From contig DYKH01000230.1 in NCBI GenBank assembly GCA_020722685.1, positions 1 to 7,217 of the forward strand: a DNA stretch of 7,217 nucleotides. The letters run 5' to 3'. Under the pieces are notes generated by a model. That model saw only the letters and a list, made by a program, of their open reading frames with translations. It was not told the DNA's origin and searched no databases. Shown in pieces: positions 388 to 7,217 of the stretch. The translations under genes were made by a program, and so were the position numbers. How positions within the stretch are numbered: position 1 is the first letter of the stretch; every line of letters begins with the position of its first letter. The DNA is from Caldithrix sp. GTDB lineage: Bacteria > KSB1 > UBA2214 > DYKH01.

Positions 388-431
388 GAATTATATGGCA
401 CTACTAAAGCCACTGCCTTTTGCGAATTGCC

Positions 432-1220
432 ATGTCACAAAGTCTCATCAATTTGGATGACATTCACGTCTCGTTTCAAGGGAACGAGTTCCGGACGTCT
501 CGGTTGCGGGTCCTGGAAGGGATTCATCTTGTCGTTCCTGAAGGTCAATTCCTTACCCTATTAGGTCCGTCCGGATGTGGGAAGAGTACTCTGCTACGCG
601 TTATGGCGGGCCTGCTTTCGCCCGATCGGGGTTCGATCAGATGGAAAGATGATTTGCTGGAGAAAAGATCGTCGCGGATGGCGATGAACTTTCAAAAACC
701 TGTCTTGTTACCTTGGTTGTCAGTGGAGGAAAATGCTCTTTTGCCGTTTCGGCTTGCCGCCAACGGCGCTCAAGCCAGGGTCGGAGCAGAGATTGAAAAA
801 CGGCTTCTGCACCTGCTGAATCTCACCGGCCTGTTCAGATTTCGCCATTCACTGCCACATGAGTTGTCTGGAGGTATGCAGATGCGTGCGGCTTTGATCC
901 GAACCCTCATCTCCAAACCGGATCTGGTGTTTATGGATGAACCATTTGCCGCCATTGACGAACTGACGCGACAGGATCTTGGCAGGGAATTTCGCTCGAT
1001 GGCTTTAGCATCAAAATCATCGACAATTTTTGTAACCCACAGCATCCAGGAAGCAGCGTTTTTGTCGGACCGCATTATTATTTTAAGTCCACGGCCATCA
1101 CATATTGTAGAGGATATTCCTGTTCACTACAGTTCAGCCGAGCGTACCGACTCGTTGCGCCGTGACAGGGAATTCCTTGATATGTGTGATCATCTTCGCG
1201 AGATAATGGCCCATGGTTAA
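432..1220 (+). CDS. ABC importer ATP-binding protein (SsuB/TauB/NrtD-type)
   Basis: A cytoplasmic ATPase of 262 residues, the usual size for this importer class, that powers uptake through the permease encoded next. All nucleotide-binding motifs are intact: Walker A GPSGCGKST (45-53), Q-loop Gln88 in NFQKPVLLPWLSVEEN, signature LSGGM (145-149), Walker B DLVFMDE (164-170) with catalytic Glu170, D-loop AAID, and switch His203 in VTHS. The Q-loop wording 'LLPWLSV.EN' and the region RIIILSPRP are typical of nitrate/sulfonate/taurine/pyrimidine transporters. I chose ATG 432; an in-frame TTG at 420 would add only four residues. Neither start has a clear Shine-Dalgarno sequence. It overlaps the permease start by 8 bases, so the two are probably translationally coupled. 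Family is certain; the substrate cannot be inferred from the ATPase. Confidence 0.93.
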   Translation: MSQSLINLDDIHVSFQGNEFRTSRLRVLEGIHLVVPEGQFLTLLGPSGCGKSTLLRVMAGLLSPDRGSIRWKDDLLEKRSSRMAMNFQKPVLLPWLSVEENALLPFRLAANGAQARVGAEIEKRLLHLLNLTGLFRFRHSLPHELSGGMQMRAALIRTLISKPDLVFMDEPFAAIDELTRQDLGREFRSMALASKSSTIFVTHSIQEAAFLSDRIIILSPRPSHIVEDIPVHYSSAERTDSLRRDREFLDMCDHLREIMAHG

Positions 1221-2331
1221 ACAAAGAGAAAAATCGGTTGTTGCAGTCGTTTTTCCAATCAAACAAGATGTCGTTGCATCACTGCATAGATATGAAGTCA
1301 TTGAACTGAAAACGGCTGAACTTTCAGCGGACGTTTTGAAGGCTCGCCGCGTAAAGCTTTTGATTGTGGGAGGCAACTACCAGCCCTTGAAGGAGGTACT
1401 ACCAATTTTACGTTCTGCCATCCCCGATCTGGCTATTGTAGCTCATACCAACATCCCTGATCGTGACAGTTTGTTTTTCTATCGTAATCATGTTGATGGG
1501 TTCTATGATTTGCCAAAAGAGGTGGACAAATTGAATCTTTCTGAGGTCGAGGACGCCGGGATAGAGCGCAGTTGGTTCCTGCGAGAGCGGTTAGGCAACG
1601 GTGCCCTGGCCCTGGCGGTACTGCTGACTCTATGGTGGAGCATGGTTGTGGTGTTTCGGCCGGCTCCTTATCTGCTGCCCTCTCCAGTAGCCGTTGCCGC
1701 TGCTTTTTTTTCCCAATCCTCGCAATTTCTCTTTCATCTCGTAGTTACCAGCTATGAGGCCTTTCTCGGTTTTGTCATTGGCAATGCACTGGGAATCACG
1801 CTTGCCATCCTGCTACATCGTTACGTCAACCTGCAGAAGTTTACCATGCCAGTATTGATCAGCTTCCAGGCGATTCCCATCGTGGCCCTGGCACCGTTGC
1901 TTGTGGTTTGGCTGGGTACGGGGCTGCTTTCCAAGGTTGCGATGGCCGCGATCATCTGTTTCTTCCCCATGGTTGTGAACGGGTTGCAGGCCTTTTCCAA
2001 TGTGGATCGGGATTATGTGGAATTATTCGAATTCTATCGGGCGAGCTTTGTCGCGAAACTCAAGATGCTTCTGATGCCAGCGAGTTTCCATGCAATTATA
2101 GCCGCCCTGAAAATTTCCGCCGGTCTGGCGGTGGTCGGCGCGATTGTCGCCGAACTGACCGGGGCCGACCGGGGTTTGGGGTATGTGCTGCTCAATGCCT
2201 CCTACCGATTGGAGACGGCGATGATGTTTGTGGCGATGCTGCTGTCAGGCGCCTTGGGCATGGCCTTTTTTCAGATGCCGCTTCTGCTCCGCTTTGTTGT
2301 GCCTCGAAGCTGGAGTGTTTCGCTTACATGA
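1213..2331 (+). CDS. ABC importer permease with N-terminal receiver-like domain
   Basis: An inner-membrane permease of 372 residues, about 110 longer than ordinary SsuC/TauC/ThiX-type proteins. The membrane part starts near residue 129 (ALALAVLLTL) and has the expected five or six hydrophobic segments. The cytoplasmic EAA loop that contacts the ATPase lies at about 268-290 (ELFEFYRASFVAKLKMLLMP). It is followed by the family signature LKISAGLAVVGAIVAEL and ADRGLGYVLLNAS (299-330). Residues 8-115 form a soluble alternating strand/helix domain resembling a CheY receiver but lacking the acceptor Asp (see separate entry). Only one permease gene is present, so the channel is probably a homodimer. 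The frame is continuous, with no stop between the parts. It begins inside the end of the ATPase gene and its stop overlaps the next start as ATGA. Confidence 0.9.
   Translation: MVKQREKSVVAVVFPIKQDVVASLHRYEVIELKTAELSADVLKARRVKLLIVGGNYQPLKEVLPILRSAIPDLAIVAHTNIPDRDSLFFYRNHVDGFYDLPKEVDKLNLSEVEDAGIERSWFLRERLGNGALALAVLLTLWWSMVVVFRPAPYLLPSPVAVAAAFFSQSSQFLFHLVVTSYEAFLGFVIGNALGITLAILLHRYVNLQKFTMPVLISFQAIPIVALAPLLVVWLGTGLLSKVAMAAIICFFPMVVNGLQAFSNVDRDYVELFEFYRASFVAKLKMLLMPASFHAIIAALKISAGLAVVGAIVAELTGADRGLGYVLLNASYRLETAMMFVAMLLSGALGMAFFQMPLLLRFVVPRSWSVSLT
1234..1557 (+). other. Pseudo-receiver-like domain within the permease (residues 8-115)
   Basis: The order of predicted elements follows a response-regulator receiver: strand SVVAVVF (8-14), helix, strand YEVIEL (27-32), helix, strand VKLLIVGGN (47-55), helix, strand DLAIVAHTN (72-80), helix, strand VDGFYDLP (94-101), helix. 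Pro-Asp-Leu before strand 4 and 'V-D-G-F-Y' before strand 5 are very receiver-like. The acceptor Asp expected at the end of strand 3 is replaced by Gly-Gly, and the Lys usually before Pro at strand 5 is absent (DLPKE). The acidic pair after strand 1 is also missing (FPIK). If the fold is right, it cannot be phosphorylated in the normal way and is a sensor or interaction module on the cytoplasmic face. This is inference from pattern; another flavodoxin-like alpha/beta fold is possible. Confidence 0.5.
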
Positions 2332-2888
2332 ACAAAATTGTTGGAATGTACGGAACTTGGCGAGCTGCTGAGGGTTCCTCGCTCTACCGGTTGGCGAGGG
2401 AGATGGGCCGGATTGCGGCTCGCCGTGGATTTGGTGTGCTGACTGGATCCTACAGCGGGGTCATGGAAGCCGCACCACGAGGAGCTAAAGAGGAAGGCGG
2501 TGAGACGCTCGGCTATGCCTGGGACAAACTCGACGCGGAACTTTCGCCCAATACATTCTTGGATCGGGTTGTTACCTATACCCGTCTTGAAGAACGGATA
2601 GCGGATTTGGTCGGTGACGCGGATGTTTGTGTGTTTTTTCCCGGCCGTACCGGTTCCGTTGCGGAGCTGGCTCTGGCCACTGAGATGCGGGCCAAGGGAG
2701 AAAAGGCGGTTCCCTTGGTCATGGTGGGGGACTTCTGGAGTAGTTTTTTTGCCTGGTTGACGGCAAGTAACGATGCGTTGAACCTGCCTGCAGATGCTCC
2801 TAGGGGCTCCGAACTGTATGTGACTGTTGAAACCGCTGACGATTTTGATCAGTTTCTCGGACAATATGAACATATTTGGCATCAATAG
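2328..2888 (+). CDS. LOG/SLOG-family nucleotide-binding protein (possible phosphoribohydrolase)
   Basis: A 186-residue cytoplasmic protein of the LOG ('lysine decarboxylase-like', TIGR00725/TIGR00730) Rossmann-type family. Visible landmarks are the N-terminal strand with GMYGT (6-10), the glycine loop TGSYSGVMEAAPRGA (39-53), an Arg90 in TRLEERIADL that matches the family's catalytic 'ER' segment, and PGRTGSVAE (105-113) in place of PGGxGTxxE. The final Glu113 of that motif is kept, but the second Gly is Arg and Thr is Ser. Authentic LOG enzymes cleave the N-glycosidic bond of nucleoside monophosphates (for example cytokinin riboside phosphates); whether this one does so is unknown. The ATG at 2328 overlaps the permease stop (ATGA); a longer upstream reading would lie wholly inside the permease gene. 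The gene's end overlaps the carbamoyltransferase by 23 bases. Confidence 0.8.
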   Translation: MNKIVGMYGTWRAAEGSSLYRLAREMGRIAARRGFGVLTGSYSGVMEAAPRGAKEEGGETLGYAWDKLDAELSPNTFLDRVVTYTRLEERIADLVGDADVCVFFPGRTGSVAELALATEMRAKGEKAVPLVMVGDFWSSFFAWLTASNDALNLPADAPRGSELYVTVETADDFDQFLGQYEHIWHQ

Positions 2889-4653
2889 TGGTCGTTCGGC
2901 CCCGCCGAGAGTAGACTCAGAGAAAGTGCGGCACTTGGCTGACGGAGGCGCGGCGCTCCTCTGCGAAGGGAAAATAGTCTGTGCGGCCATAGAAGAACGG
3001 TTCACCCGGACTCGCTACTCGGGTGGATTTCAGAAAAGCGGGGTCGCCTGTCTTGCCCAGGGAAAACTTCACCTTTCCGACCTCGATGCGGTGGGCCATT
3101 CCACCTGCTGCGACGTCGCTTGGTCGGATCCCGATGATGTGTTGGCGGACATCGCGGAATCTTGGACGGGGATTTACCCCAGGGATTATGTTTACGAGGC
3201 CTTGCGGGGCAAGGTTTACACGATCAATCACTATGAGAGCCACGCTGCTCTGGCCTTTATCGGAAGTGGTTTTCCCAGGGCCCTGGTTGCGGTGATCGAC
3301 GGCATGGGAAACCGTTATGACGACGGCAGAGACTTCCATATCGAGGCAGACTGGTGGAGAGGCTCCTTTCAACGGCACGCGTATTATCTGTGCGAATGGC
3401 GTTCCGGACGGATTCATTTTGAAAAGGTCCATGAGGATGCCTGCGGGGTGGACGAGATTGGACTTGGCGAACTCTATCGCAGTGTGACCCACTTTCTCGG
3501 TTGGTCGACTTATCAGCATGCGGGAAAGACCATGGCCCTTGCCTCATTCGGCGACTTCAGCCACCTCGACGGGGTGCGCTTGGTCGATTTTGAGCCACCT
3601 TATACGACCAGAGTGCCGATCACCAACAACCATGAGCAGCCGGTTCAGCAGATCGCCGAAGCCATCCGTCGGGCCGGCTATTCTGTGCCGCAATTGGGAA
3701 CGAAACCGGGTTCGCCAGAATCACCCTTTCTCTGTGATGTAGCCGCACTGCTTCAGCATCAGCTGGAGGCAGCCCTTTTACCTGCCGTTATCGGCTTGGC
3801 CGAGGCGCATGGTGTCGGCAACGTGGTCTTTGGCGGCGGGGTTGCTCTGAACTGCGTGGCATTGGGCAAGATCGCCGCGTCTCGGCCCGATTTGTGCCTC
3901 TATGTCCCGCCGGCACCGGCCGATACCGGCCAAGCCCTGGGAAACGCCCTGTGGCTTGCCTACGCGGCCAACTCTCCAGTTGTTGAGCAGAATCGGCCCC
4001 AACCCATTGCTTCCGCCGCCCTGGGGGTGGAATACTCGCAAGGTGAGATTGATGCGGCTGTTGCGGATTTCTTGGCGCGTGTCTCTGATATCGTGGCGGA
4101 GAAGGTTGATGATCAGGCAACTCTCGCCGATCGGATTGTTCAGGACCTTGCTGCAGGCAAGGTCGTCGGCCTGCGTCAGGGCCGGGCCGAATACGGTCCC
4201 CGGGCGTTGGGGCAGGCGAGCATCCTCGCCGACCCTCGAAGCATCGAAACCCACGACCGCGTCAATGCCTATAAGCGGAGGGAACCATTTCGTCCGTATG
4301 CCCCGAGCATCCTTGCCGAATATGTCCCGGAGTACTTCGAGATCGACACGCCCAGCCCGTTCATGAGCTTTGCCGGTCTCATCCGACAGGAGAAGCGGCA
4401 CGAGATCCCTGCGGTGGTCCATGTGGACGGCAGTGCACGTTATCAAAGCGTAGGTCCGGACTCTGGTTTTTACCGACTCCTGCTCGAGGCCTGGCACTGC
4501 CATTCGGGTGTCCCGGTGTTACTCAACACCTCGTTTAACCAAAACGGCGAGCCCATTGTCGAAACACCGACCGACGCGCTCACATGTTTTGCACGGAGCG
4601 GTCTTCCGGTATTGGTTTTAGGGAATTGGTATCTTCAACGAAAAACTCACTGA
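2866..4653 (+). CDS. NodU/CmcH-family O-carbamoyltransferase
   Basis: A 595-residue cytoplasmic enzyme, full length for the family, which transfers a carbamoyl group from carbamoyl phosphate to a hydroxyl of a small molecule with ATP (nodulation factors, cephamycin, tobramycin). The Kae1-like half shows ALLCEGKIVCAAIEERFTR (30-48), metal-ligand histidines in NHYESH (His122, His126), VIDGMGNRYDDG (143-154), HAGKTMALASFG (218-229), FGGGVALNC (322-330) and PPAPADTGQALGNA (348-361). The C-terminal half shows GRAEYGPRALG (439-449), KRREPFRPYAPSIL (470-483), DGSARYQSV (521-529) and LLNTSFNQNGEPIVETPTDA (552-571). Two deviations from the usual motif are seen: GQASILADPR where GNRSILADPR is typical, and CVALGK where an Asn is common. 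I chose ATG 2866 because MNIFGIN matches the family N-terminus; the in-frame ATG at 2827 would add 13 unrelated residues. The acceptor substrate is unknown. Confidence 0.92.
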   Translation: MNIFGINSGRSAPPRVDSEKVRHLADGGAALLCEGKIVCAAIEERFTRTRYSGGFQKSGVACLAQGKLHLSDLDAVGHSTCCDVAWSDPDDVLADIAESWTGIYPRDYVYEALRGKVYTINHYESHAALAFIGSGFPRALVAVIDGMGNRYDDGRDFHIEADWWRGSFQRHAYYLCEWRSGRIHFEKVHEDACGVDEIGLGELYRSVTHFLGWSTYQHAGKTMALASFGDFSHLDGVRLVDFEPPYTTRVPITNNHEQPVQQIAEAIRRAGYSVPQLGTKPGSPESPFLCDVAALLQHQLEAALLPAVIGLAEAHGVGNVVFGGGVALNCVALGKIAASRPDLCLYVPPAPADTGQALGNALWLAYAANSPVVEQNRPQPIASAALGVEYSQGEIDAAVADFLARVSDIVAEKVDDQATLADRIVQDLAAGKVVGLRQGRAEYGPRALGQASILADPRSIETHDRVNAYKRREPFRPYAPSILAEYVPEYFEIDTPSPFMSFAGLIRQEKRHEIPAVVHVDGSARYQSVGPDSGFYRLLLEAWHCHSGVPVLLNTSFNQNGEPIVETPTDALTCFARSGLPVLVLGNWYLQRKTH

Positions 4654-4668: not shown

Positions 4669-4737
4669 ATGCGTCCTGTATTAAGTCAACTACTCACCCT
4701 CTGCCTGGTGGTGATGTCGTTGCTGTTGAACAGCTGC
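4669..4737 (+). other. Type II (lipoprotein) signal peptide with Asp+2
   Basis: Residues 1-22 have Arg2, a hydrophobic core LLTLCLVVMSLLL (8-20) and the cleavage box L-N-S before Cys23. The next residue is Asp. Signal peptidase II would cleave before Cys23 and leave a lipid-anchored protein. Confidence 0.88.
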
Positions 4738-5685
4738 GATCAGAACAAGGAGGCACCAACCAAGACAGAGACCACCACCTCCAAGCCGGCTGTCATGGAA
4801 AAAATCAAGTTTCGTCTGGCCTGGGTGTACGATATGGCGGAGGTCGGGATCTTGGTGGCCAAGGAAAAAGGCTATTTTGCAAAGGAGGGTCTGGATGTCA
4901 CCATCGAGCCCGGCGGCTTCGGACTTGATCCGATCAAGCTGGTCGCCACCGGTTCGAACGATTACGGCATCGGCGGCGCCGGCAATATCTTGCTGGCACG
5001 GGCGCAAGGAGTGCCGATTGTCGCCATCGGAGCTGAATTTCAAAACACACCAGTGGGTTTTATCACCCATAAGGATTCCGGGATTACATCGTTTGCCGAC
5101 TTTAAAGGTAAGCGGGTGGGGGTACAGACTGGCGCTGATACCGACGTGCTCTACCGGGCGTTGCTGGCTAAGAACCACATGACTTCTCAGGACGTGACGG
5201 AGATTCCCATCCAGTTCGACATGGGGCCGTTCACCAACAAGATCATAGATGTCCTGCCCGGCTATGTGACCAACCAGCCGATTACCTTGAAAGGGAAGGG
5301 GTTTGAGACCAACGTGATCACCGCCGCCTCCCAGGGCCTCAACTACTACGGCAATGTCTTTTTTACCACCGAGGCGACCCTAAAAAATAAGCCCGAGCAG
5401 GTTGCAAGGTTTCAGCGGGCGGTGCTGGCTGGCTGGCAGGATGCCTTGACCAACAAGGCCGATGCCATCGCTGCCCTTCAGAAATACACCCAGGAGTTCG
5501 ATCCCAAGGATCTGGATCAGATCTATGACGCGGTCATGCCCTTTATCCGTCCCGATGAGCAGGGGGTTCCTCTGCTCGGCATGTCGCAGGCCCGGTGGTC
5601 GCAAACGGCCCAGGTCCTGCTTGATGCCGGCCTGCTCAAAAAAATGCCCGATCTGCACGCCGCCTATGTTCTGCCGAAGGATTAA
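4669..5685 (+). CDS. ABC importer substrate-binding lipoprotein (NMT1/THI5-like)
   Basis: A 338-residue solute-binding protein of the NMT1/THI5-like (SsuA/ThiY-type) superfamily, the extracytoplasmic receptor of the importer. The signal peptide ends in lipobox LNSC, with lipidated Cys23. Asp24 at +2 is the inner-membrane retention signal in E. coli, which suits a receptor that stays next to its permease. A Lys/Thr-rich linker (24-44) precedes the mature fold: FRLAWVYDMAEVGILVAKEKGYF (48-70), GLDVTIEPGG (74-83), LVATGSNDYGIGGAGNILLARAQG (91-114), FKGKRVGVQTG (145-155), DVLPGYVTNQP (194-204) and NYYGNVFFTT (225-234). The DV-PGY-N-P and NYYGN-FFTT segments resemble pyrimidine- or flavin-precursor-type members more than taurine or nitrate ones, but this is a weak clue to ligand. 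Its gene is separated from its ATPase and permease by two enzyme genes. Confidence 0.92.
   Translation: MRPVLSQLLTLCLVVMSLLLNSCDQNKEAPTKTETTTSKPAVMEKIKFRLAWVYDMAEVGILVAKEKGYFAKEGLDVTIEPGGFGLDPIKLVATGSNDYGIGGAGNILLARAQGVPIVAIGAEFQNTPVGFITHKDSGITSFADFKGKRVGVQTGADTDVLYRALLAKNHMTSQDVTEIPIQFDMGPFTNKIIDVLPGYVTNQPITLKGKGFETNVITAASQGLNYYGNVFFTTEATLKNKPEQVARFQRAVLAGWQDALTNKADAIAALQKYTQEFDPKDLDQIYDAVMPFIRPDEQGVPLLGMSQARWSQTAQVLLDAGLLKKMPDLHAAYVLPKD
5677..5681 (+). promoter_or_regulatory. Shine-Dalgarno-like site for the methyltransferase
   Basis: AAGGA lies six bases upstream of ATG 5688, inside the last codons of the lipoprotein gene. It supports 5688 as the start; the two genes are separated by only two bases. 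Confidence 0.55.
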
Positions 5686-5687
5686 GT

Positions 5688-6578
5688 ATGTCCCTCCCTG
5701 CCCAGGAACGCCGTATCCCTGAGGCGGAGTTCGTGATCCGTATTGACCAGTTGCTTGAGAAGGGGCTTCCGGAAAAGACCGTCCCTTGGCCTGCTGACAG
5801 TCCCCCTGCCTGGGCGCGCGGATTTCGCCCTCAGACTATTGTTGATTTGGGCACTGGGGTTGGTGGTTTCATGAGGTCAGTGCTGCTGCGTCTCGGGCAA
5901 TGGGGGTGCCTGGAGGGGCTGAAACGGCTGGTCTTGATAGAAAGTGACAAGGCCCTTTCTCCATCGGGTAGTGAAATGGGTTTGCAAAGGCTGCTTTTAA
6001 TGAAAGCAAAAGAGGCCTTGGCTGTGGCAGGAAAAAGCGATGTGGCTGTGGAAACGGTGATTGCACCGGTACGGGTTGAAAGCAAAGATGGATTCCAAGA
6101 GGGGGTGATCTCTGTCCTGGAACCATACCGGGCGGTTGATTTAATCATCGCCTCGCACATCACATACTATTTTGGCGACGGCTCCGGCCGGGAATTGCTT
6201 CCTGCTTTAGGGCGTTACCTCTCTCCGAATGGAGGACGGTTGTGGTGTGTGATCCGCAAACAGAACTGTCCGATTTATCAGACGCGGGCCAAGACCTTGG
6301 CCAAGCTGGGCCAAGATGATGTCAAACCATTTGATTACGCAGAGTATTTTGAGCGGGTGGTCTTGCCCGTGTTTCCGGAATTTGTTGTGTTGGAGACAGC
6401 GGACAAGGGGTATCTTGGAGATCCGGGCCAGGAGGGGCGGGCCGATGCCGCCTATTTCCTGATGTGGCGTGAAGTGCCCTTGCATCATGAGAATCCGTAC
6501 TGGCAGGCGGTTGCCGATATTGTTGCCGCACCGGAGCCGCTCTTTGTCGAGCGGCATTTTATAGTTGAGAGATCATAA
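5688..6578 (+). CDS. Class I SAM-dependent methyltransferase
   Basis: A 296-residue cytoplasmic protein with the Rossmann-fold methyltransferase core. Motif I is IVDLGTGVGGFM (51-62), the SAM-binding loop. The acidic residue at the end of strand 2 is Glu85 in LVLIESDKAL. Motif IV is VDLIIASHITYYFGD (150-164), and the strand after the following helix is LSPNGGRLWCVIR (178-190). The 'ASH-YYF' wording resembles small-molecule N- or O-methyltransferases of the histamine-N-methyltransferase-like group; no rRNA or DNA target motif (such as NPPY) is present. An N-terminal extension (1-48) and a C-terminal segment (about 195-296) with many aromatic residues may form the acceptor pocket. It follows the lipoprotein gene by two bases and its TAA overlaps the next ATG by one base, so it belongs to this operon. 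The methyl acceptor is unknown. Confidence 0.85.
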   Translation: MSLPAQERRIPEAEFVIRIDQLLEKGLPEKTVPWPADSPPAWARGFRPQTIVDLGTGVGGFMRSVLLRLGQWGCLEGLKRLVLIESDKALSPSGSEMGLQRLLLMKAKEALAVAGKSDVAVETVIAPVRVESKDGFQEGVISVLEPYRAVDLIIASHITYYFGDGSGRELLPALGRYLSPNGGRLWCVIRKQNCPIYQTRAKTLAKLGQDDVKPFDYAEYFERVVLPVFPEFVVLETADKGYLGDPGQEGRADAAYFLMWREVPLHHENPYWQAVADIVAAPEPLFVERHFIVERS

Positions 6579-7217
6579 TGATGAGCCCGCAGAACAGTTC
6601 GTTTACGACGATATACATGCTGCTCACGAGTGAATGGAGGCTTGAGAACTTCTCTGTAAAGTGGGATGAGTTAGCCAAAGGGTCTTACGACGAATTCCGT
6701 TGTAAGCTCATGGCTTCAGCAGAGTATGCCGCATTTTTTATCCGTGCCCTGCTTGGCGACCATCCAAGTCGAAAGCAGAATGGAGATAAATGGCAGCTGA
6801 GTTGGAAAAATAATAATGAAATTACAATATCTGGGGAAAAAGAGAAAGAACAACTTCAGAAGGCGCAAGATAATAAGGAGGCACTGATCGGCGCCGATTT
6901 GACTGCACGCACCGGTTTGACTTTAGCTTGGCAGATTTGTCAATCCACCAAACAAACATTTTATCCAGAGCTGGATATTTGCTCAAATCCCTTCAAAAAT
7001 GGCAATGCGGCATTACGATTCCATTCCGCCGACTTTATCTACGGTCCCATCAAGGATTTGGTTTATGTCAAAAAGAATAATGGCGGGGTTTTTGAAAGAG
7101 CAAGTCAGGAGCAATATGATAGCCTATATTACAAAATCGATTTTGAGAAGGACATGAGAAACCACGGTTGGCGAACAAGTGGTGAACATGGCTTCACGAA
7201 TGACCCATACTGCCTTG
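6578..7217 (+). CDS. Unrecognised protein, N-terminal 213 codons (3' end outside window)
   Basis: The frame opens at ATG 6578, overlapping the methyltransferase stop by one base (TAATG), and stays open to the window edge. A second ATG follows directly at 6581. The protein begins MMSPQNSSFTTIYMLLTSEW and is soluble-looking, with no signal peptide or clear membrane segment. About residues 60-110 are charged and hydrophilic (Lys-, Asn- and Glu-rich, GEKEKEQLQKAQDNKE). Later segments are richer in aromatic residues (FHSADFIYGPIKDLVYVKK). I recognise no family or catalytic motif. By eye its codons are more A+T-rich than those of the preceding genes, especially around 6780-6880, which may mean separate acquisition. 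Start overlap and strand place it in the operon. Confidence 0.75.
   Translation, partial: MMSPQNSSFTTIYMLLTSEWRLENFSVKWDELAKGSYDEFRCKLMASAEYAAFFIRALLGDHPSRKQNGDKWQLSWKNNNEITISGEKEKEQLQKAQDNKEALIGADLTARTGLTLAWQICQSTKQTFYPELDICSNPFKNGNAALRFHSADFIYGPIKDLVYVKKNNGGVFERASQEQYDSLYYKIDFEKDMRNHGWRTSGEHGFTNDPYCL

What the first reader, a model, noticed from the sequence alone, without database searches (positions are those of the whole stretch)
1213..2331. ABC permease carrying a degenerate receiver-like domain at its N-terminus
Seen: the permease is about 110 residues longer than SsuC/TauC/ThiX-type permeases, and the extra part alternates hydrophobic strands and amphipathic helices in the order of a CheY receiver, ending VDGFYDLPKEV. 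The acceptor Asp position reads IVGGN and the strand-5 Lys is missing. Known: receivers control kinases, transcription factors and enzymes; importers are commonly regulated through ATPase-fused domains (for example CBS or NrtC-type), not through a receiver on the permease. Inference: a phosphorylation-independent pseudo-receiver that gates transport or couples it to the enzymes encoded in the same operon. It would be a new domain architecture if confirmed.
Basis: partly seen in the sequence, partly recalled or inferred. Interest (0 to 1): 0.75.

Follow-up and report, generated by a model that had tools for sequence, protein, structure and literature searches.

The report
Nutrient importer with built-in pseudo-receiver
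A bacterial nutrient-import channel protein carries at its front end an extra piece predicted to fold like the signal-receiving domain of two-component systems but lacking the residues that domain needs for phosphorylation, so it likely controls import through contact with another molecule; this domain combination appears to be undescribed.

Summary

The extended rows fall in one permease clade. Two nested members appear to have lost the domain in frame; one still shares a contig length with the clade's binding protein, so the domain looks accessory. Most likely it regulates import without phosphorylation through a partner or ligand; that is inferred, untested. Substrate and signal are unknown. 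Six library searches listed no paper on such a fusion.

The parts
1213..2331 (+). ABC importer permease with N-terminal pseudo-receiver (372 aa, P0001)
1213..1539 (+). Pseudo-receiver domain, residues 1-109
1369..1371 (+). Gly53, at the position of the phospho-accepting Asp
   Evidence: hhalign aligns the acceptor Asp of L087 to G53; 0 of 61 rows have Asp in this column
1411..1413 (+). Arg67, invariant, in predicted helix 3
   Evidence: 61 of 61 rows
1423..1425 (+). Pro71, helix 3 to strand 4 loop
   Evidence: 60 of 61 rows, Ser in one
1447..1449 (+). Thr79, at the position of the receiver's conserved Thr/Ser after strand 4; not conserved in the family
   Evidence: hhalign register; S 16, A 12, G 10, T 5 of 61
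1495..1497 (+). Asp95, nearly invariant, just before strand 5
   Evidence: 60 of 61 rows, Glu in one
1510..1512 (+). Leu100, at the position of the receiver's strand-5 Lys; followed by the usual Pro (P101, 50 of 61)
   Evidence: hhalign register; Lys in 0 of 61
1540..1596 (+). Linker, residues 110-128, predicted helix (alpha 5 position) leading into membrane helix 1; low-confidence hinge at 111-120
   Evidence: pLDDT block 58; hydropathy segment 127-152
1597..2328 (+). Membrane permease part, residues 129-372
420..1220 (+). Importer ATPase; overlaps the permease start by 8 bases
   Evidence: PF00005 E 2.4e-30; ORF
4669..5685 (+). NMT1/SsuA-type substrate-binding protein, lipoprotein-like start by eye
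2328..2888 (+). SLOG/LOG-like Rossmann protein (ATG at 2328 chosen by eye); overlaps the permease end by 4 bases
   Evidence: PF18306 E 1.3e-16, PF03641 E 2.8e-10
2866..4653 (+). Carbamoyltransferase of the NodU/CmcH type (ATG at 2866 read by eye; scanned from 2872)
   Evidence: PF16861 E 2e-57, PF02543 E 1.2e-19
5688..6578 (+). Possible SAM-dependent methyltransferase (weak)
   Evidence: PF13489 E 0.014, below cut-off

Best explanation
The permease subunit of this ABC importer carries an N-terminal domain predicted to have a receiver fold and lacking the acceptor Asp and strand-5 Lys, and this pseudo-receiver likely regulates import without phosphorylation by binding a cytoplasmic partner or ligand. 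Shown by calls: the extension, its conservation across 61 aligned rows, the missing phosphorylation residues in the profile register, and its absence from other members of the same permease clade. Predicted: the receiver fold, and a helix that joins it to the first membrane helix. Inferred: cytoplasmic location (from the related CmpB/NrtB permeases), two copies per importer (one per permease of the dimer), and a mode of action in which partner or ligand binding, perhaps through the conserved residues Arg67, Pro71 and Asp95, changes how the two pseudo-receivers sit at the cytoplasmic side and so raises or lowers transport, a form of trans-regulation. Substrate and signal are not known.
Against: No experiment. 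Sequence evidence for receiver homology is modest: PF00072 is not among the 18 families listed for the 28 domains at E up to 1; hhalign probability is only 46; in the PDB sequence search nothing reaches 0.001, the best row is a plant Rac GTPase fragment (0.012) and a second Rac row scores 0.059. Foldseek: of 20 rows at E up to 0.001, 13 are cobalamin-binding domains (from 1.4e-4, TM 0.52-0.64), 7 TadZ/CpaE-type (from 9.2e-5, TM 0.60-0.73), none a canonical receiver. The domain evolves much faster than the membrane part (for P0036, 20% against 66% identity to P0001), which would also fit a loosely constrained structural role. Clade members exist without it. No partner was identified.
Confidence: 0.55

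Rival explanations
1. The domain is a structural or assembly module: it helps the permease fold, dimerise, localise or bind its ATPase, without sensing anything. TadZ and FrzS, the nearest folds, act in polar localisation.
For: Nearest structural relatives are TadZ/CpaE and, among receivers in the sequence search, FrzS, whose role is polar localisation (FrzS: PMC1974792 abstract and passages; TadZ recalled). Fast divergence with few invariant residues. Loss seems tolerated.
Against: Permeases of the SsuC/NrtB kind are commonly found without it: the matches listed in 385 Alphaproteobacteria genomes (82 genomes hit at E up to 1e-65) and 369 Gammaproteobacteria genomes (6 hit) begin at profile position 94 or later (class names from the titles of the loci used as centres). 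Near-invariant Arg67 and Asp95 suggest a specific site.
Confidence: 0.25
2. The domain binds a cofactor or small molecule as a B12-binding or other flavodoxin-like domain, not a receiver derivative.
For: Foldseek: 13 of 20 rows at E up to 0.001 are cobalamin-binding domains, methylmalonyl-CoA mutase from E 1.4e-4.
Against: No DxHxxG motif (recalled as the B12 signature) in the first 130 residues of 61 rows; hhalign to 10 B12-binding domains E 0.038 against 2e-4 for 22 receivers; no B12 domain among the 50 best rows shown by VIA-align; TM-scores lower than for TadZ; no Rfam family, riboswitches included, over its cut-off in the window.
Confidence: 0.1
3. The domain is still a phospho-receiver that uses a shifted acidic residue (position 54 or 55; Asp55 in 25 of 61 rows) as acceptor.
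For: Asp is the commonest residue at position 55 (25 of 61); Asp54 in 6 and Glu54 in 10 of 61.
Against: Position 55 lies three residues after predicted strand 3 and is Asn in the window's own protein; the strand-5 Lys is absent in 61 of 61 rows and no acidic pair after strand 1 is conserved. FrzS has a similar layout (small residue at 53, Asp55 nearby) and its Asp55Ala mutant has no motility phenotype (PMC1974792 passages).
Confidence: 0.05

Closest known systems
TadZ / CpaE N-terminal CheY-like (atypical receiver) domain, PDB 4lda, 4dn6
   Different: In TadZ/CpaE the domain precedes a ParA/MinD-type ATPase (recalled), here an ABC permease.
FrzS pseudo-receiver (Myxococcus xanthus), PDB 2gkg, 2nt3, 2nt4
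   Same: Nearest receiver-type hit in the PDB sequence search (E 0.018-0.062); small residue at the acceptor position with an Asp two residues on; phosphorylation-independent.
   Different: FrzS acts in polar localisation for motility; it keeps the Lys and the switch Tyr, while the permease domain lacks the Lys in 61 of 61 rows.
SsuC / TauC / NrtB / CmpB permeases (PF00528)
   Same: Membrane part: BPD_transp_1 E 3.8e-22; CmpBCD and NrtBCD are among the closest solved importers.
   Different: The matching NCBIfam models for SsuC, TauC, SaoP and NtrB are 202-275 positions long and cover only the membrane part; none of their cut-offs is reached.
Importers regulated by extra domains (OpuA CBS, ModC, MetN, NrtC; recalled)
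   Same: A soluble domain on a transporter subunit controls transport.
   Different: There the domain is on the ATPase subunit (recalled); here it is on the permease.
Minor pseudo-receiver Pfam families (FleQ PF06490, PF21155, PF21194, PF21695, PF21714, PF22368; PMC12632262 section 4)
   Same: (beta/alpha)5 topology with almost none of the five active-site residues; FleQ gives traces here (1 of 28 domains at E 0.012; 2 of 62 whole proteins, best E 0.087).
   Different: None of the other five appears among the 18 families listed; the review holds 0 mentions of transporter or permease.

Membership tests
Phospho-receiver domain (PF00072) | (beta/alpha)5 receiver fold | tested here: met
   Predicted models and VIA-align rows; a prediction, and Foldseek also lists cobalamin-binding domains
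Phospho-receiver domain (PF00072) | Acceptor Asp at the end of strand 3 | tested here: not met
   G53; Asp in 0 of 61 at this column
Phospho-receiver domain (PF00072) | Lys at the end of strand 5 | tested here: not met
   L100; Lys in 0 of 61
Phospho-receiver domain (PF00072) | Acidic pair after strand 1 | tested here: not met
   Residues 12-15 are V V F P; no conserved acidic pair in 61 rows (position 15: Glu 10, Asp 6); outside the hhalign range, so placed by predicted secondary structure
Phospho-receiver domain (PF00072) | Match over the Pfam cut-off | tested here: not met
   No family at E up to 1 for the window's domain; PF00072 not among the 18 families listed for 28 domains, nor among the 25 of 33 shown for 62 whole proteins
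Pseudo-receiver (definition of PMC12632262) | Receiver fold lacking key phosphotransfer residues | tested here: met
   As above; predicted fold
Pseudo-receiver (definition of PMC12632262) | Identified computationally as a receiver | tested here: not met
   No Pfam receiver hit; it resembles the minor families that the review counts outside PF00072
Pseudo-receiver (definition of PMC12632262) | Acts in its protein without Asp phosphorylation | not testable with these tools
   Needs experiments
TadZ/CpaE atypical receiver | Closest structural family | tested here: met
   4lda is the only domain row, first by 1.1 Z and first
TadZ/CpaE atypical receiver | Fused to a ParA/MinD-type ATPase (recalled) | tested here: not met
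   Fused to a PF00528 permease
B12-binding domain (PF02310) | DxHxxG motif (recalled) | tested here: not met
   0 of 61 rows in the first 130 residues
SsuC/TauC/NrtB-type ABC permease | BPD_transp_1 domain over cut-off | tested here: met
   79.4 bits against 26.4
SsuC, TauC, SaoP or NtrB equivalogs | NCBIfam curated cut-off | tested here: not met
   Best 93.9 bits against 295 for SaoP

The most novel reading that the evidence does not exclude
A whole clade of ABC importers carries its own signalling switch on the channel subunit: a pseudo-receiver captured from two-component signalling, stripped of its phosphorylation site, now reads a cytoplasmic ligand or partner directly and gates import, making it a first known case of a receiver-type domain controlling a permease.
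Probability: 0.45. Interest if true: 0.75.

Novelty: new variant of a known kind. Interest (0 to 1): 0.58.

Why it matters
What turns pseudo-receivers on and off is called the central unanswered question about them (PMC12632262 section 17). Here one is tied to an output, import, that could be measured directly, and relatives that seem to have lost the domain in frame (P0025, P0026) offer a ready comparison. It would also add a permease-borne regulatory domain to importers, whose known regulatory domains sit mostly on the ATPase (recalled). Pfam does not recognise it, so Pfam-based surveys could hardly have counted it.

Tried and rejected
Context of relatives could not be read. The one genome-contig scan with A1 kept 80 loci of 340 confirmed; the top row is 40% identical, the highest 42%, and each aligns only from query residue 77 or later, so none shows the whole domain. 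The viral scan gave no relative. Plasmid records: 1233 matched, 0 with 80% of the query. In many genomes the first look scored only part of the candidates, so absence there is weak. A domain-only protein search (residues 1-112) found only P0001 and P0002 among 87 candidates, so it says little about other hosts of the domain.

Co-occurrence with the binding protein was judged only by equal longest-contig length in two hit lists, cut at the best 120 of 405 and of 220. It is indirect, and permeases far from the query would be expected to have binding proteins outside the second list, so the contrast with outside rows is partly built in. Of 120 permease rows, the fragment P0097 was left out of the tree. 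P0054, P0057 and P0061 (contigs of 1.0-1.6 kb) and P0044 begin inside the protein and may be cut or mis-started rather than true losses, although the script labelled the first three 'none'. The 61-row counts include the window's own protein, leave out P0084 (which lacks the domain and was misaligned in A1) and do not include P0049 and P0050 (extended but shortened; they make 63 in the tree). A few of the 61 start late (for example P0016, P0023, P0024). The ext label rests on 85 or more residues before the permease part.

The quick tree has 45 of 116 inner branches open and warns that long branches meet; the extended group needs 8 changes on it (at least 2 forced by starred branches), so gain and loss are clear only for the P0025/P0026 case. 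A comparison of permease columns between 63 extended and 14 unextended rows gave 24 differing columns but no contact surface. Literature: of ten searches, six asked about a receiver or pseudo-receiver with a transporter or permease (1, 0, 9, 4, 0 and 3 papers); their listed titles and abstract starts did not concern such a fusion, and I opened none of those papers. The other four asked about TadZ, FrzS, aspartate-less receivers and Kentrum. Three papers were opened: PMC12632262 (outline, passages, sections 4, 7, 17, 19, 20), PMC4395418 (passages, section 10), PMC1974792 (passages). The library is open-access only, a 2006 response-regulator census was not held, and supplementary tables were not readable.

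Full report
What is there. The window holds a compact gene row on the + strand: importer ATPase (420-1220), the permease in question (1213-2331), a SLOG/LOG-like protein (2328-2888), a NodU/CmcH-type carbamoyltransferase (2866-4653), an NMT1/SsuA-type binding protein (4669-5685), a weakly recognised methyltransferase (5688-6578) and a further open frame from 6578. With starts chosen by eye the first four genes overlap by 8, 4 and 23 bases, which suggests one operon. Rfam finds nothing over its cut-offs in the window.

The extension. Known families cover only the membrane part of the permease. Of 405 homologues the best 120 were listed. 61 aligned rows, the window's own included, carry the extension (with P0084 left out); 63 rows were scored as extended in the tree. 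In the 61, Arg67 is invariant and Pro71 and Asp95 are present in 60 each. The domain diverges faster than the membrane part, yet these positions hold.

Degeneracy. In the hhalign register the acceptor Asp falls on Gly53, the strand-4 Thr on Thr79 and the strand-5 Lys on Leu100, with Pro101 kept. Across 61 rows no Asp is at 53 and no Lys at 100; position 79 is S, A, G or T in 43 of 61. FrzS, a studied pseudo-receiver, likewise has a small residue at the acceptor position and a nearby Asp55 whose change has no motility phenotype (PMC1974792 passages). Asp phosphorylation is therefore unlikely.

Distribution and history. The 63 extended rows lie in one permease clade of 84 rows, split by a long branch (SH-aLRT 100) from the other 35 tree rows. 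The clade also holds rows without the full domain: a 12-row subclade, the pair P0064/P0070, P0046, four that may be cut, and P0025/P0026, sister to the extended P0019. P0025 keeps a stub of the first strands and P0026 only about a dozen N-terminal residues, so both look like in-frame losses. Named members include Paucibacter sp. JuS9 (P0052), Panacagrimonas (P0020) and Allosphingosinicella (P0068); the binding protein P0134, on a contig of the same length as P0021, is named from Candidatus Kentrum sp. DK. By equal contig length, 37 of 63 extended rows and 9 of 21 other clade rows share a contig with this binding-protein family, against 0 of 35 tree rows outside; the fragment P0097, not in the tree, also matches. 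The importer thus seems to be one family, and the domain an accessory to it.

Mechanism. Because the domain is attached to the permease but absent from some relatives, and lacks phosphorylation residues, I favour regulation by partner or ligand binding on the cytoplasmic side. Cytoplasmic placement is inferred from the match to CmpB and NrtB. Pseudo-receivers elsewhere bind partners (FrzS-SgmX) or ligands (quinones in CikA and KaiA, c-di-GMP in ShkA, pathway end products in JadR1 and RedZ) (PMC12632262). An end-product-type feedback on uptake, possibly linked to the carbamoyltransferase and LOG-like genes, is attractive but untested. A purely structural or localising role is the main rival.

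Novelty. Two papers on degenerate receivers do not mention permeases in their main text: 0 hits in PMC12632262 for transporter or permease, 0 for permease in PMC4395418, whose three mentions of transporter are of an iron-uptake target and a figure key. Six library searches listed no paper on such a fusion. Pfam does not see this domain. I file it as a new variant: a known fold class on a known permease type, in a combination not found described.

Noticed in passing
window 2328-2888: The LOG-like neighbour reads PGRTGSVAE where LOG proteins have PGGxGTxxE (motif recalled), so its phosphoribohydrolase activity is doubtful.
   Followed up: partly
P0025 and P0026 (homologues): Close relatives that seem to have lost the pseudo-receiver in frame, natural deletion variants.
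   Followed up: yes
window 2328-4653: A LOG-like and a carbamoyltransferase gene lie between the permease and its binding protein, a pairing with an importer that I cannot place.
   Followed up: no
window 6578-7217: Partial open frame with a weak DUF1824 match (E 0.0072, below cut-off).
   Followed up: no
L082: A divergent receiver in an open frame of 250 residues, below the PF00072 cut-off (E 1.7e-4), picked up by the pseudo-receiver profile.
   Followed up: no
window, both strands: Promoter-like sites are more frequent than in shuffles (10 against 4.6), but none lies on the + strand upstream of the ATPase gene.
   Followed up: no
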